NCBI GenBank assembly: GCA_016806715.1
Contig: CP060531.1
Location: 558,001 to 622,000, forward strand
Reading direction: 5' to 3'
Source: Thermoplasmatales archaeon
GTDB taxonomy: Archaea; Thermoplasmatota; Thermoplasmata; Thermoplasmatales; Thermoplasmataceae
Length of the DNA: 64,000 nt
Numbering within the stretch: position 1 is the first letter of the stretch; each line of letters starts with the position of its first letter. The notes under the pieces were generated by a model. It was not told where the DNA came from and made no database searches. It saw nothing but the letters and a program-made list of their open reading frames with translations. Shown here one piece after another: positions 14,250-20,050 of this stretch. Both the position numbers and the translations under genes were made by a program.

Positions 14250-15497
14250 ATGGAAGATAGCGAATCCCAGATCAGGAGATACGAATTCAAGAAAGCACTC
14301 AATGAATTAACGAAACTTCACGGAAGAGGCACTGAACTGATTTCTCTGTACATCCCGCCTGACAAGCAGATTTCTGACGTTGTGCAGTATCTTCGTGAGG
14401 AATTCTCCACTTCCTCTAACATAAAATCCAAGTCAACGAGAAAAAACGTGTTAGCTGCCATAGAATCCATAATGTCAAGGCTCAAGTATTACAAAGCCCC
14501 CCCGGAAACAGGGCTGGTATTCTTTGTCGGGCATGTGGCAACCCGCGGTGACCAGACTGAAATGTATACAAAGATCATTGAACCACCGGAAGCGTTCCAG
14601 ACGTTTATGTATAAATGCGATTCCGTTTTCCACCTGGAGCAGTTGCAGACACAGCTTGGAGAAAAAGAAATTTACGGGCTGATCGTGATGGACCGTAAGG
14701 AGGCGACAGTCGGAATCCTCAGCGGAACAAACATAATTCTTATCACGAACGAGCAGTCGCTTGTCCCCAGCAAGCATCATCAGGGAGGGCAGTCATCGAG
14801 GCGTTACGAAAGGCTTATTGAAATAGCTGCACATGAGTTTTTCAAGAAGGTGGGAAACATAGCCAACGAGGCATTCATGCCCAGCATAAGGGAGATGAAG
14901 GCCATATTCATCGGTGGTCCGGGGTCTACGAAGAACTACTTTTTTGAGAAAGAATACCTCAGGAATGAGCTCAAGTTCAAGGTTAACGATCTCTTCGATA
15001 TCGGTTATACTGACGAATCAGGGCTAAGAGAACTGGTTGAAAAAGCCTCCACAAACATCAAGGACATGAAGATTTCAAGGGAGAAGGATCTCATGAATAG
15101 ATTCATGATGGAAATCAAGAAGAATGACGGTGGCCTGGGCGTATACGGTGAGGCGAATGTGCTTGCTGCACTCAGGGCCAAGACTATAGACCTCCTGCTT
15201 GTTTCCGAGGATCTCGACAAGAATCATGTATCCTTGAAATGTCCCAATTGCGGGAACGAAAAGGAAACATTCCTTGCTGGAGGGCAGGATACCGTAAACT
15301 GCGAAAAATGCGGAACACCAATGAGTGTCATACAAAAAGAGGATTTCCTTGAATACATATTTCATCTTGCCGAAGCATCCGGCGCCAAGACGGAATTAAT
15401 TTCTGATACAAGTGAGGAGGGAAAACTCCTGGAACGGGCCTTTGGTGGCATGGCAGGGATATTAAGGTATGTTCCCAAGGAACAGCAGATTCAGTGA
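14250..15497 (+). CDS. prf1: peptide chain release factor subunit 1 (aRF1)
   Basis: 415 residues, the normal aRF1 length. The stop-codon reading motif NIKS is at 57-60 and the peptidyl-hydrolysis GGQ at 179-181. A C-terminal minidomain has a four-Cys zinc site (CPNCGNE... CEKCGTP). A TTATAAAT element at about 14233-14240 provides the promoter. It recognises all three stop codons in the ribosomal A site and releases the polypeptide together with aEF1A-GTP. This matters here because several surface genes in the window carry in-frame stops. Confidence 0.96.
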
Positions 15498-16121: not shown

Positions 16122-16141
16122 AAATATCGCACCTCTGTTTC

Positions 16142-16167
16142 AAGGTAGTAGATTATCTTTCTACCTT
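16142..16167 (-). promoter_or_regulatory. dyad-symmetric operator candidate upstream of the ferritin-like gene
   Basis: A perfect inverted repeat, AAGGTAG (16142-16148) and CTACCTT (16161-16167) with a 12-nt spacer, lies between the expected transcription start and the ferritin-like start codon. A dimeric repressor bound here would block transcription; an iron- or manganese-responsive DtxR/MntR-type protein is a reasonable guess. Confidence 0.45.
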
Positions 16168-16195
16168 TTCACTATATCTTATTGCTTCAAGGCAC

Positions 16196-16202
16196 TTATA
16201 AA
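16196..16202 (-). promoter_or_regulatory. TATA box of the ferritin-like gene
   Basis: Minus-strand TTTATAA. A start about 25 nt downstream (near 16173) would give a leader of about 50 nt that contains the dyad at 16142-16167 and the Shine-Dalgarno. Confidence 0.45.
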
Positions 16203-16638
16203 TTGGCTTTTCCAAAAAAATGCCCATTTCTTATGCATTGTATTTTAGGGGGATTTTAAAGGTATTTTGATTTCTCATTCTCTGATAGTTTACTCCTTCA
16301 CTTAAGCCAGATGTCATGAAAAAAGTGGATCAAAATGTTAAGTAATTAATTTCGCGATTTGTACAGAGATTAGTGAAACATTTCAGAAGTCGATCCTGTG
16401 GAAAATATCCCTTGCCTTACGGTGCTGATGAACAATCAATTCTTGAAATTCTCATGAAATATTACCATAAGATACCAAAGAGAATTGCAGTTCTGAAAAG
16501 TGGGGGAAACTGATTTTCAATCGTGAATTGCCGACTTGATATGTAGCCATGACCGCAATTAATACTCAAATATCTCTCAGGCCTCAACAAAATAATCATA
16601 GATCTGGATTTTTATATATATGCCAATTCCTTATCTTA
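16203..16638. other. 436-bp stretch without a confident gene
   Basis: A plus-strand frame at 16373-16513 (GTG start, 46 codons, product containing PLPYGADEQSILEILMKYY) reads like protein but has no recognisable family and may be a remnant. TTTTTATATATATGCC at 16610-16625 is the TATA box of the next gene. Confidence 0.35.
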
Positions 16639-16878
16639 ATGGAAGACCTTTGCCGGAAAGAAGTAAAGACTGGTTTAACCAGGCTAAGAGAGATCTGGAG
16701 TCCCATTGCGGCAATTGTCGCAGCTGCTCTGGTCGCATCCGCTGCAGTACTTGGTCTTATCAACTGGATGGGCGGTTATCAAGGAGTATATTATGCAGAT
16801 TCTACTAACTGGATTGCCTCTTTATATGGGCATCCTCCAGCATGGATTGCATATAACCCCGTCCCAGGTGGATATTGA
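16639..16878 (+). CDS. single-pass small membrane protein, 79 aa
   Basis: I place the start at the ATG 16639 (MEDLCRKEVKTGLTRLREIW) because a TATA stretch is centred about 25 nt upstream; the longer frame back to 16549 would cross it. One hydrophobic segment (SPIAAIVAAALVASAAVLGL) is followed by a short external part rich in Tyr and Pro (PPAWIAYNPVPGGY). It opens a cassette of small membrane and surface proteins (16.6-18.7 kb) and has no known family. Confidence 0.6.
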   Translation: MEDLCRKEVKTGLTRLREIWSPIAAIVAAALVASAAVLGLINWMGGYQGVYYADSTNWIASLYGHPPAWIAYNPVPGGY

Positions 16879-16912
16879 GTACTGGTAACAATGCTTAAAA
16901 TAGGAGGGAAAA

Positions 16913-17122
16913 ATGGATAAAGATATGAGGGTCTTTTTCTCGCTTTACATTATACTAGCAGTCATAGGAGTAGTCGGCATTTTGAACTGGGGAGGATACC
17001 TGAAAACAGATTGGATGCCAAGTACCTTGACCTTAATAACTTTGGAAAGTGCGGGAATTCTGGCGACTACTCTTGTTATGGTGGTGTTCAAGACACATTC
17101 TAATGCGAGGGACAGGATCTAA
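16913..17122 (+). CDS. two-helix small membrane protein, 69 aa
   Basis: ATG preceded by AGGAGGG, an almost perfect Shine-Dalgarno, so it is an internal operon gene translated after the 16639 gene. Two hydrophobic segments (FFSLYIILAVIGVVGIL and STLTLITLESAGILATTLVMVV) and a basic C-terminal tail (THSNARDRI). No recognised domain. Small two-helix proteins of this sort recur next to exported proteins elsewhere in the window. Confidence 0.65.
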   Translation: MDKDMRVFFSLYIILAVIGVVGILNWGGYLKTDWMPSTLTLITLESAGILATTLVMVVFKTHSNARDRI

Positions 17123-17145
17123 AACAAATATCAGGGGAATGATAT

Positions 17146-17340
17146 TCAATGGATATTCTCTAAAAACCCTATCGTCTTTTCAGTATCATCCAAACTGAAT
17201 TCCCATGCTCGTGTTTTGTAGAATTTGTACTTCCCCTGCCAGGAGGTCGAATCCAGGCCATAGAACTTCTGGATAAATTTGTTGACAACCGGCTGTTCGG
17301 TTTTCTTTGGAAACCTGAATACCATGATTGATCCAATCAT
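17146..17340 (-). CDS. small hypothetical protein, 64 aa, possibly truncated
   Basis: Soluble, basic, starting MIGSIMVFRFPKKTEQPVVN with a second Met at residue 6. The sequence FIQKFYGLDSTSWQGKYKF has good coding character, and the C-terminus SLDDTEKTIGFLENIH is a helix. It is convergent with the 16913 gene and stands alone on its strand inside the surface cassette. It resembles small conserved archaeal proteins that I cannot name; it may have lost an internal segment. Function unknown. Confidence 0.45.
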   Translation of the reverse strand: MIGSIMVFRFPKKTEQPVVNKFIQKFYGLDSTSWQGKYKFYKTRAWEFSLDDTEKTIGFLENIH

Positions 17341-17446
17341 TACGTGTAGGAATCAGACTCTCCGTATGTTGAGGGAGACTATTCCGTCAGACATGCGGAG
17401 AGTCTGTCAAGGGCAATATTCGTATAGTCAGTTCAATTGATAATCC

Positions 17447-17572
17447 ATGGAACATGACAAAAAGAGGCCGTCGGCTCCTCGGACTATGATCACGGTTGCC
17501 ATCATAGTGGCTGCTATATTTGTTGCGGTGAACTTCAGTCCCGTTGCTGATAACAGCGCCAGTGGAGGGTAG
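17447..17572 (+). CDS. 41-aa signal-anchor peptide, in frame with the downstream surface protein
   Basis: Encodes a basic N-terminus (MEHDKKRPSAPRT), one hydrophobic segment (MITVAIIVAAIFVAV) and a short external stretch ending SPVADNSASGG, then TAG at 17570-17572. The codons after the TAG continue without another stop into the surface protein at 17579-18346. It therefore looks like the export signal of that protein, separated by an amber codon. It may instead be a free-standing small membrane protein with reinitiation downstream. Confidence 0.55.
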   Translation: MEHDKKRPSAPRTMITVAIIVAAIFVAVNFSPVADNSASGG

Positions 17573-17578
17573 GTTTCC

Positions 17579-18346
17579 ATGCCACCCGCTGTATCGAACA
17601 ATGGCTACGGCATACACACATCATACAACATTGCTCAGTCACAGAATGGCCAAACCGTGAATGGGTGGGTGGATTATACCCTAAATAACTCTTATGGGCT
17701 TAGTCTCGGTACAAACGTCACCGATATATCGTCTAATGGTTGTTCCCAGACCAACGTTTCCGGCAATAACCTGAGCCTGTTTATTTCTTTTGACTTGCCA
17801 GTGACACGGGAGCTTGGGAGTCTAAACACTTCCCTACCAACTGCAAGTAGCAGTGATTCGATATACTATTTCCAAAAGAGCGGGCCTGGATGGAGTTCTG
17901 TCCTCGGGGACTTAATAGTTTCGGTATCATCATTTTCATCGGTAACAGCTTTCGCGTCGGCATTTGGCTTTGACATATCGGATGTGATAGCGGGGTTCCC
18001 GGGATACAGCGCCGCATCCGCTACCGCACTTGCACCAGTGTTTGTTGTGATCGTAGGAGCCGTTGCCGTTGATTTCATTGCTTTATATACGCCCTCTCAG
18101 ATTGAACATTATCCGTCATTTTATGCCGAAGTCGGCATGAGTTGGCCTACTGGATGGCTTTTCTTTTTGCACCCAAATTACCTCGGAGCTTATGGTGAAG
18201 AGGGCTTATATTCGGGTGACGCGGATACATATGGTGGAACATATCTACCGTACTTAGTTGATGGCGGTGCCGGTAATACTTTTGCAAACGGCGAAGTGAC
18301 ACATAATGGTGGTCCTTGGAATACTTTTGAGGAGCCACCGTGGTAA
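17579..18346 (+). CDS. surface protein ectodomain lacking its own signal peptide
   Basis: 255 residues starting MPPAVSNNGYGIHTSYNIAQ. The first 90 residues are Asn/Ser-rich with sequons (NVTDISSNG, NVSGNNLSL). Two hydrophobic stretches lie near residues 105-130 and 148-172 (ALAPVFVVIVGAVAVDFI), followed by an aromatic C-terminal domain. As annotated it has no export signal; the in-frame 41-codon anchor just upstream (17447-17572) would supply one if the TAG were read through or is a recent mutation. GGAGGG ten nt upstream allows reinitiation. Confidence 0.65.
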   Translation: MPPAVSNNGYGIHTSYNIAQSQNGQTVNGWVDYTLNNSYGLSLGTNVTDISSNGCSQTNVSGNNLSLFISFDLPVTRELGSLNTSLPTASSSDSIYYFQKSGPGWSSVLGDLIVSVSSFSSVTAFASAFGFDISDVIAGFPGYSAASATALAPVFVVIVGAVAVDFIALYTPSQIEHYPSFYAEVGMSWPTGWLFFLHPNYLGAYGEEGLYSGDADTYGGTYLPYLVDGGAGNTFANGEVTHNGGPWNTFEEPPW

Positions 18347-18347
18347 C

Positions 18348-18662
18348 ATGGAATCGACTGAGATTTATCCACTTTTGCCGCTGTGGACATGGGCCCTTAC
18401 GGCATTTATTGTCTTCGTAGTTTCCATCTTTATACTTGTTCATTCTCGGGGGCAAGATCCAGGTTGGATCACCACCAAACCCGGGAAACTACTGGCGATG
18501 TTTGAGTTTTTACTTTCGATCGTGTTTCTTGTGGTTACGTATTTCGCCCTAACAGTGATTGGTGCTGTGCTTTTTGGGATTCCCATGGTCCTTGCAATGC
18601 TGGTCGGGCTTTACAACTTCCTGACCATCCGTTCGAAGACAAAGAAAGCCGGGAGGGAATAG
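18348..18662 (+). CDS. three-helix membrane protein, 104 aa
   Basis: Start taken at the ATG 18348 (MESTEIYPLLPLWTWALTAF), one base after the stop of the surface protein, rather than the longer frame from 18306 that runs inside it. Hydrophobic segments lie at about 13-31, 48-70 and 72-92, with a basic tail (RSKTKKAGRE). It closes the cassette and is likely co-transcribed with the surface protein. No known family. Confidence 0.65.
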   Translation: MESTEIYPLLPLWTWALTAFIVFVVSIFILVHSRGQDPGWITTKPGKLLAMFEFLLSIVFLVVTYFALTVIGAVLFGIPMVLAMLVGLYNFLTIRSKTKKAGRE

Positions 18663-18986
18663 TAAGATATCCAACCTTTTCGACACCCGAACTTGTCAAT
18701 ACCATATCTTGACATGATAACTCTGACTTTTGGAACAATTGTTTTGGGTTCTTGCCCTGGTTTCCATTCAGGAGAGCTGGAACTCATACTCAATGGCCTG
18801 TAAAGTCGGGTCATGTTTTTCCAAAACATGCTGTCTAATACGCTATTTATTGATGATTTGGCATTTGACAGTTAAAATGGGATTCTTATACATGAATTGT
18901 GGCTATAATGTTGACTGCAATTACGAGTTTTCAATTCAAATTTAAGCATTCATAATGTTTTTAACCAACTTCAATGTATAATAAAA
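18663..18986. other. 324-bp intergenic stretch
   Basis: No convincing gene; the one plus-strand frame here is Cys/Trp/Met-rich and lacks a ribosome signal. GTTTTTAACC near 18957-18966 is a TATA-like element placed about 25 nt before the reductase start at 18987. Confidence 0.4.
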
Positions 18987-19553
18987 ATGCGCAGGGTGGT
19001 TTTGGACAGCCTTATGTCCCTCGATGGATACTACACGGATTCGAAGAACCAGATCGATTGGTTCCCGCAGTTTGAGGAGGAGGATTTTGCCTGGTCTCAC
19101 GATGTTCTGACACGTGCCGGATTATTAGCGTTTGGGCGCACAACTTACGAAGAGTTCTCGAAGTTCTTTCCTACAGTGGATCCAGTGTCGGCAGGATGGG
19201 ACCCGTATATTCCCAAACAACTCAATGAATTACCCAAAATTGTTTTTTCAACATCCCTGAAGGAGGCTACCTGGAAACCATCAACTATAGTTCGGACTAA
19301 CCCCGCAAAAGAGATTGCCCGTCTGAAAAACGAACCCGGCAAGGATATCGTAGTTATTGGAAGCGGATCTATTGTCTCTGAGGTGGTAAGATACGGACTG
19401 GTGGATGAGTTCCGGATTCGCGTTCTCCCCATTATTCTGGGCTCTGGAAAGCCCTTACTCAAAAATCAATCTAAGCAACTCCCTCTCAAGCTTGTTGAAG
19501 CGAAAACATTCAAGTCGGGGGTACAGGCGCTCTACTACATACCCAAACAGTAA
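18987..19553 (+). CDS. RibD C-terminal/dihydrofolate-reductase-like protein
   Basis: 188 residues of the RibD_C fold: RRVVLDSLMSLDGYYTDSKN at the start, GLLAFGRTTYEEFSKFFP (the conserved GRxTYE/W motif), KDIVVIGSGSIVSEVVRYGL (dinucleotide-binding G-x-G-S) and ILGSGKPLL near the end. This family includes NADPH-dependent reductases of pyrimidine or pterin intermediates and resistance-type DHFR-like proteins. A specific substrate cannot be assigned. The leaderless start is supported by the TATA at about 18960. Confidence 0.88.
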   Translation: MRRVVLDSLMSLDGYYTDSKNQIDWFPQFEEEDFAWSHDVLTRAGLLAFGRTTYEEFSKFFPTVDPVSAGWDPYIPKQLNELPKIVFSTSLKEATWKPSTIVRTNPAKEIARLKNEPGKDIVVIGSGSIVSEVVRYGLVDEFRIRVLPIILGSGKPLLKNQSKQLPLKLVEAKTFKSGVQALYYIPKQ

Positions 19554-19607
19554 TATTCCAATTATGAAACCACGAGGATGCTGGAACTCAATATTGTGAG
19601 GATAGTT

Positions 19608-19997
19608 TTAGATCTTCTTAACGTGTTTACTGTATTCCCGAATTCGTGACCAAGCGTACATTGCAATATAGATCATAGGTAAAAGGTAGAACCCTATAAC
19701 CAGAGTAATATCCGCAAGCGAAAGCGACAGGGTAGATCCGAATTTTTCGAGAGCATTGAAATGTGCCGGGTTGGAAGCAGAGATCATGGCGATAATTCCC
19801 AGAATAACTCCAATAGAGAGGGCTTTTCTGTTTTCCCTGTATACAAAATAGGAATCAGAGAATACTATGGCGGCTGCAATAAAAGTAAGGTATGTGAGTG
19901 ACAGGGGAACAAGGCCTGCAACCCTCAGTATAACTGCGCCAATAATAATGGTAAAAGCCGAGGCAACGAGCAGGAGAGTGTAAAGCTTCCAATTCAT
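19608..19997 (-). CDS. four-helix membrane protein, 129 aa
   Basis: Four hydrophobic segments (about 5-27, 31-48, 58-76, 90-113), short loops and a basic C-terminus (RIREYSKHVKKI). No domain recognised. It follows the DUF981 gene on the same strand with a 53-bp gap and is probably co-transcribed with it. Confidence 0.65.
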   Translation of the reverse strand: MNWKLYTLLLVASAFTIIIGAVILRVAGLVPLSLTYLTFIAAAIVFSDSYFVYRENRKALSIGVILGIIAMISASNPAHFNALEKFGSTLSLSLADITLVIGFYLLPMIYIAMYAWSRIREYSKHVKKI

Positions 19998-20050
19998 TTA
20001 CCTATAATAAAAAAGTATTACTAAAAAAATTGTGTATGGGAATAAAAAAA

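What the first reader, a model, noticed from the sequence alone, without database searches (positions are those of the whole stretch)
17447..18346. Amber codon exactly between a signal anchor and its surface ectodomain
The 41-codon anchor ORF and the 255-codon ectodomain ORF are in the same frame, separated only by TAG and two codons. Without read-through the ectodomain has no export signal. It is either a recent nonsense mutation, reinitiation (GGAGGG precedes the second start) or stop-codon recoding.
Basis: seen in the sequence. Interest (0 to 1): 0.5.

Follow-up and report, generated by a model that had tools for sequence, protein, structure and literature searches.

The report
Broken export gene beside intact partner
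A stop codon cuts off the export signal of an acid-loving archaeon's secreted protein; this is most likely an ordinary recent gene break, but it points to an apparently undescribed pair of genes (an exported protein plus a small membrane protein) whose exported half often breaks while the membrane half is usually kept.

Summary
In detail: a 41-codon signal-anchor ORF (17447-17572), TAG, two codons, then a 255-codon ORF (17579-18346) in the same frame. Intact relatives encode both parts as one protein, and the genome's own second copy reads on without a stop at this place, so this is one gene with a nonsense codon. Recoding is not supported: no PylS over cut-off, no CUA anticodon among 45 tRNA genes, TAG ends 7 of 58 long window ORFs, and the release factor has its stop-recognition motifs. 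Reinitiation at ATG 17579 (GGAGG 10 nt upstream) remains possible but would leave the product inside the cell. The larger result is the context. The gene is the first half of a two-gene cassette, exported protein plus small multi-helix membrane protein, seen at 17 of 18 family loci examined. Of 21 copies classified, the exported half is open in 10, broken in 9 and unclear in 2; the membrane half is open in 8 of the 9 broken copies. In this genome the four exported genes found (two families) are all broken and their four partners open. The layout resembles a bacteriocin-immunity pair, but no activity is known. The stop itself is ordinary.

The parts
17447..17572 (+). 41-codon ORF: basic N-terminus, one hydrophobic segment (signal anchor or signal peptide), short linker, TAG
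   Evidence: aligns with N-termini of intact relatives and with the 816-kb paralogue
17570..17572 (+). in-frame TAG (nonsense codon)
   Evidence: no stop at this place in the own paralogue or in the ten open relatives
17564..17568 (+). GGAGG, Shine-Dalgarno-like, 10 nt before ATG 17579; it lies in the two glycine codons of the linker
17579..18346 (+). 255-codon remainder of the exported protein: hydrophobic segment and conserved GEEG ... W-N ... EPPW C-terminus
   Evidence: carries the columns invariant in alignment A2, of which it is a row; no further stop
18348..18662 (+). 104-aa small membrane protein, 3 predicted TM segments, its ATG separated by one base from the stop of the exported gene; probable partner (the mechanical ORF starts at 18306)
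   Evidence: 45% identical partner at 816 kb
16639..16878 (+). C-terminal remnant (about 79 aa; mechanical ORF starts 16549) of a second exported-protein family of about 300 aa; N-terminal part missing
   Evidence: 63% identical over 60 columns to the C-terminus of an open protein in G096
16913..17122 (+). 69-aa membrane protein with 2 predicted TM segments; probable partner of the second cassette, similar in size to the 69-codon open frame after the G096 protein
16122..19600 (+). accessory segment holding both cassettes; absent at the same place in congeners G002 and G003 (boundaries approximate, judged by eye)

Best explanation
One gene, one nonsense codon. The ancestral gene encoded a single exported protein of about 300 aa: a signal segment, a beta-rich domain, a hydrophobic helical hairpin and a conserved C-terminal tail. 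It was followed at once by a small multi-helix membrane protein. In this genome a TAG arose in the linker after the signal segment. Termination there gives a 41-residue membrane peptide; any product from ATG 17579 would lack a signal and stay inside the cell, so export is lost (inferred). The membrane partner stays open. With different lesions, the same has happened to the other copies found in this genome and to several copies in relatives. The cassette may work like a secreted antagonistic protein with its protective membrane protein, so that losing the secreted half while keeping the protective half costs little (inference, not shown).
For: The paralogue is continuous across the TAG place. 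Ten of 21 family-1 copies are single open genes with both parts, among them Ferroplasma acidarmanus Fer1, UBA567 (two copies) and E-plasma (two copies, one with a start codon in doubt); G012 and Fer1 (G028) carry the same protein. Nine are broken by lesions at different places. In-frame stops: 7 of 20 family matches over 100 bits against 3 of 84 in two control families, Fisher p 3e-4; leaving out the matches that were rows of the query profile, 4 of 11, p 3e-3. A small membrane ORF follows at 17 of 18 loci against 2 of 57 other window genes. The partner is open in 8 of the 9 broken copies. Own genome: the four exported genes found are broken (575, 816, 984 and 574.6 kb) and their four partners open. 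Both proteins evolve as real proteins: dN/dS 0.11-0.58 in the pairs computed.
Against: Only one lesion lies in about 300 codons, and the remainder keeps the conserved residues, so a product may still be made. A Shine-Dalgarno-like GGAGG stands before ATG 17579, which is rare at internal ATGs (3 of 306). One other genome (G034) also has its only stop (TAA) between signal and ectodomain. A base-calling error is not excluded. Retention of the partner is only weakly beyond chance: about 5.1 lesions expected, at most 1 seen, Poisson p 0.04, with lesion counts and codon lengths set by me.
Confidence: 0.78

Rival explanations
1. Reinitiation: ribosomes terminate at TAG and restart at ATG 17579 on the GGAGG site, making a cytoplasmic version of the protein. 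Because the partner's ATG follows the exported gene's stop after one base, such restart would also keep ribosomes flowing to the partner, so the restart site could be under selection for the partner's sake.
For: GGAGG at 10 nt, seen at 3 of 306 internal in-frame ATGs of the other window genes against 5 of 46 gene starts; ATG only two codons after the TAG; partner ATG close behind the stop.
Against: The GGAGG lies in two glycine codons of the linker; the paralogue has the Met but not that motif before it (by eye). Of the 21 copies classified only G034 has a stop in the linker, at another place; its restart context was not scored. The product would have no export signal.
Confidence: 0.12
2. Read-through or reassignment of TAG (pyrrolysine or a suppressor tRNA) restores the full-length exported protein.
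For: Six of the eight in-frame stops in family matches over 100 bits are TAG, although TAG ends only 7 of 58 long window ORFs.
Against: No PylS over cut-off. No CUA anticodon among 45 tRNA genes, though tRNA-Trp was not among them, so the list is not complete. TAG is an ordinary stop in this window. The aRF1 at 14250-15497 has NIKS and YKCDSVF. Several TAG copies carry further lesions (G097, G090, G091, G095 second copy).
Confidence: 0.03
3. Sequencing or assembly error at 17570-17572 in an intact gene.
For: A single substitution is enough; the rest of the gene is intact; no reads were available.
Against: The other three cassettes found in this genome are broken by larger lesions that a base error would hardly explain, so a broken copy is unsurprising.
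Confidence: 0.07
4. On function (a separate question from the stop): the exported protein and the small membrane protein form a surface complex (for example an anchor and an adhesin or sensor) unrelated to antagonism; the family is simply dispensable and decays.
For: No killing or protection has been shown; no family or fold match gives a function.
Against: Patchy distribution (17 of 117 genomes of the order), partners more diverged than the exported proteins in the seven pairs where both were compared, and the partner outliving its mate fit an immunity role somewhat better.
Confidence: 0.45

Closest known systems
Sulfolobicins of Sulfolobus (archaeocins)
   Same: Membrane- and vesicle-associated antimicrobial proteins of thermoacidophilic archaea; a truncated relic of one gene is reported in another strain (passages of PMC5733018 and PMC3718332).
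   Different: No sequence comparison with sulfolobicin genes was run here; gene order and partner type were not compared; no killing activity is known for the present family.
Pneumococcal blp bacteriocin loci with inactivated transporter genes ('cheater' proposal)
   Same: Export-side genes broken in most strains, apparently by repeated independent lesions, while the rest of the locus is kept (passages of PMC4739728).
   Different: There the transporter is broken, not the bacteriocin's own signal, and that paper argues against the cheater reading; here neither toxin nor immunity is shown.
Nonsense pseudogenes in accessory islands (general kind, recalled)
   Same: One in-frame stop, homologues uninterrupted, other copies more decayed, two congeners lack the segment.
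   Different: The remainder starts at a good ribosome-binding site, so partial expression is conceivable.

Membership tests
Pyrrolysine (amber) recoding | Pyrrolysyl-tRNA synthetase gene in the genome | tested here: not met
   Only two matches, both below the cut-off (37 and 18.3 bits against 178.15), in G000. Genome completeness 96.97%.
Pyrrolysine (amber) recoding | tRNA with CUA anticodon | tested here: not met
   45 tRNA matches; anticodons from ARAGORN, one intron-bearing Met and one intron-bearing Tyr (GUA) read by eye; none is CUA. tRNA-Trp was not found, so the list is not complete.
Pyrrolysine (amber) recoding | TAG avoided as a terminator | tested here: not met
   TAG ends 7 of 58 non-overlapping ORFs of 100 aa or more in the window; the rest of the genome was not counted.
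Nonsense-inactivated gene | Both parts are one gene in relatives | tested here: met
   Continuous in the paralogue across the TAG and in 10 of 21 family copies.
Nonsense-inactivated gene | No functional product | not testable with these tools
   Needs proteomics or ribosome profiling.
Programmed split gene or reinitiation | The split is conserved in relatives | tested here: not met
   Of 21 copies only G034 has a comparable stop in the linker (TAA, different place); G009 has a TAG in the signal region.
Bacteriocin-immunity type cassette | Exported polypeptide | tested here: inconclusive
   N-terminal hydrophobic segment in open relatives (model helix 4-18 at low confidence); no signal-peptide predictor was available; not fulfilled in the window copy.
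Bacteriocin-immunity type cassette | Small membrane protein gene adjacent | tested here: met
   17 of 18 loci, control 2 of 57. That it is cognate was not tested.
Bacteriocin-immunity type cassette | Killing of relatives, and protection by the partner | not testable with these tools
Sulfolobicin | Sequence relationship to the sulfolobicin genes | not tested
   The original paper is not held and the genes were not fetched.

The most novel reading that the evidence does not exclude
Thermoplasmatales carry an undescribed group of archaeocin-like cassettes, at least two parallel families: an exported protein with a hydrophobic helical hairpin plus a small membrane immunity protein. Lineages repeatedly turn into immune non-producers by breaking the exported gene while keeping the partner. 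In the window copy the restart site after the TAG may even serve to keep the partner translated.
Probability: 0.3. Interest if true: 0.65.

Novelty: new member of a known kind. Interest (0 to 1): 0.35.

Why it matters
The stop codon is an ordinary gene break. What it points to could matter more. A study of an E-plasma metagenome bin from Parys Mountain reports no bacteriocin loci from database searches (passages of PMC10354927), while another E-plasma record (KI542675.1) carries this cassette in open form (L058, L060); whether the Parys Mountain bin has it was not tested. If the cassette is antagonistic, it would be a candidate weapon-and-shield pair for these extreme acidophiles, and the repeated loss of the exported half would make the producer/immune non-producer question testable in archaea.

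Tried and rejected
Recoding: PylS and tRNA searches were negative. Viral or plasmid carriage: a scan of viral contigs gave no relative, and plasmids and phages gave no match with the Fer1 protein at E 1e-5. Known families: Pfam and NCBIfam matches of the 12 members were scattered, one member each, best E 0.021 and 0.0026. Where cut-offs were shown all were below them; the best, a model named JUQZ_fam_ocin at 18 bits against a cut-off of 40 in one member, was treated as chance. PDB by sequence: none at E 1. Folds: the window part alone modelled badly (pLDDT 40). The intact Fer1 homologue was moderate (pLDDT 60.5, pTM 0.60) and its fold searches gave no convincing match (best Foldseek E 0.16; best VIA Z 6.1, under the usual best Z stated by the tool). 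The partner's sequence search found only the own paralogue (1 of 117 genomes), so partner conservation across genera rests on position and topology. TAG preference among internal stops (6 of 8) was set aside because several of those copies carry other lesions.

Limits of the counts. The controls used single-protein queries and the family a profile; that profile (A1) contained two rows read with X at a stop, so I also give the matches that were not rows of it (4 of 11). In the 21-copy tally G009 (stop in the signal region, possible later start) and G019 (signal missing, near a contig edge, TnpB-like ORF downstream) count as neither open nor broken; the G005 second copy has no ATG at the expected start and is counted open. 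The 14 weaker matches were not classified, except the 816-kb copy.

Full report
What is there. The reading is exact: ATG 17447, 41 codons, TAG 17570-17572, GTT TCC, ATG 17579, 255 codons, TAA 18344-18346, one frame. The window lies in a single-contig genome of 1,959,588 bases, unnamed here. Relatives named through genome contigs are Thermoplasmata: Ferroplasma acidarmanus Fer1, Ferroplasmaceae UBA567, E-plasma, UBA447 and several bins (14 loci).

One gene, not two. Searching the genome with the gene finds a copy at 816 kb and a third at 984 kb. The 816-kb copy reads from its signal segment into the N-terminal region without any stop at the TAG place (BLASTP E 3e-6; 81.5 against a best of 50 in 500 shuffles). 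It is itself broken about 30 codons later by a frameshift and has an internal deletion. The 984-kb copy keeps only the C-terminal part. Outside the genome the family occurs in 16 of the other 116 genomes searched in the order, at E 1e-4. In a draw of 400 genomes of the class, 19 match, own included, and all 19 lie in the same family; some of these match weakly or only at the signal segment. It was not found in viral contigs, plasmids or phages. Two of the three congeners show the place without the segment: in G002 about 130 bp stand where the window has 16122-20050, and in G003 the stretch up to about 19600 is missing (genes matched by eye). The G001 contig ends there.

State of the copies. 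I classified 21 copies: the 20 matches over 100 bits plus the 816-kb copy. Ten are open with a signal segment (G005 two copies, G096, G012, G028, G088 two copies, G089, G092, G095 first copy; G012 and G028 carry the same protein, and one G005 copy has a doubtful start). Nine are broken (three in this genome, G032, G097, G034, G090, G091, G095 second copy). Two are unclear (G009, G019). This rests. The lesions differ in kind and place. In-frame stops occur in 7 of 20 matches over 100 bits, and in 8 of all 34 matches, against 2 of 44 and 1 of 40 matches of two other proteins of the window (Fisher 3e-4 and 2e-3). Leaving out the matches that were rows of the query profile, it is 4 of 11 (p 3e-3).

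Partner gene. At 17 of 18 loci examined by script (two of them in this genome), an ORF of 91-182 aa with two or more predicted membrane segments starts between 58 bases before and 23 bases after the end of the exported gene. The exception is G019, where a TnpB-like ORF follows. The same rule is met by 2 of 57 other genes in the window (Fisher 1e-13). The 816-kb copy was missed by the script's pattern but has a 104-aa partner, 45% identical to the window's. G012, and the G095 second copy, were not among the 18. The partner is open in 8 of 9 broken copies; in the G095 second copy none was found. A rough expectation from the lesion rate is 5.1 lesions in the partners, with at most 1 seen (p 0.04). 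This is suggestive only: the lesion counts were set by me, and a shortened partner could be missed. Partners are more diverged than the exported proteins in all seven pairs where both were compared (for example 55% against 71% identity, G005 and G096). In the pairs computed, most of which include a broken copy, dN/dS is 0.11-0.58 for both; synonymous sites are saturated in some.

A second cassette. The 109-aa ORF just upstream proves to be the C-terminal remnant of another exported family: its last part is 63% identical over 60 columns to the end of an open protein of G096 that begins with a signal segment. Further members are in G092, G031 and E-plasma, and relics with stops are in congener G003 and in G085. 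It too is followed by a small membrane protein: 69 aa in the window, a 69-codon open frame in G096, an 85-aa ORF in E-plasma and a 134-codon open frame in G092. In the G003 relic the partner frame also has a stop. So four such cassettes were found in this genome; all four exported genes are broken and all four partners are open. Other families of the same plan were not searched for.

Mechanism. Termination at TAG frees the signal segment as a 41-residue peptide; anything translated after it stays in the cytoplasm (inferred). TAG is an ordinary stop in this window (7 of 58). The release factor gene 2 kb upstream carries NIKS, YKCDSVF and GGQ, motifs tied to stop recognition and release (passages of PMC2613156). 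PylS is absent and no tRNA with CUA was found among 45 (tRNA-Trp was not found, so the list has a gap). Reinitiation is the live rival: GGAGG at 4-12 nt is found at 3 of 306 internal ATGs against 5 of 46 starts of the other window genes, and the partner's ATG, one base behind the stop, would profit from ribosomes that restart.

What the cassette does. The best model, of the intact Fer1 protein, shows a signal helix (low confidence), a beta-rich domain, two long helices (155-178 and 184-212) and three further strands (pLDDT 60.5, pTM 0.60). No known fold or family stands out. Exported protein with a hydrophobic hairpin, adjacent fast-diverging small membrane protein, patchy presence, and loss of the exported half more often than the partner: together these look like a secreted antagonist with its immunity protein. 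That is an inference; a plain surface complex fits nearly as well.

Literature. Searches for Ferroplasma with bacteriocin, Thermoplasmatales with archaeocin (no paper), Ferroplasma with secreted and antagonistic, and Thermoplasmatales with pseudogenes and secreted listed nothing whose title or shown abstract describes this cassette; I saw listings only, except for the passages cited. PMC10354927 (passages) reports no bacteriocin loci in an E-plasma bin from Parys Mountain by database search.

Noticed in passing
window 16549-17122: Second broken cassette of the same plan directly upstream: C-terminal remnant of another exported family plus an open 69-aa membrane partner.
   Followed up: yes
L016 2582-3592 (816 kb) and L017 2259-2978 (984 kb): Two more decayed exported genes with open membrane partners in the same genome; the 3' ends of the 575-kb and 816-kb partner genes look almost identical at the DNA level (by eye), which suggests exchange between the copies.
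   Followed up: partly
L060 4377-9702 (E-plasma): Two different exported-protein/membrane-partner cassettes lie within 6 kb of each other, as in the window.
   Followed up: partly
L054 (G019): Family copy without signal segment or partner, with a TnpB-like ORF downstream; the peptide SSPPFRKGSFARL is seen in a translation on either side of it.
   Followed up: no
window 14250-15497: Gene for the archaeal peptide chain release factor, 2 kb upstream of the interrupted gene; its motifs are normal, so the proximity is probably coincidence.
   Followed up: yes
G000, whole genome: tRNA-Trp was not among the 45 tRNA matches, perhaps because of an intron.
   Followed up: no
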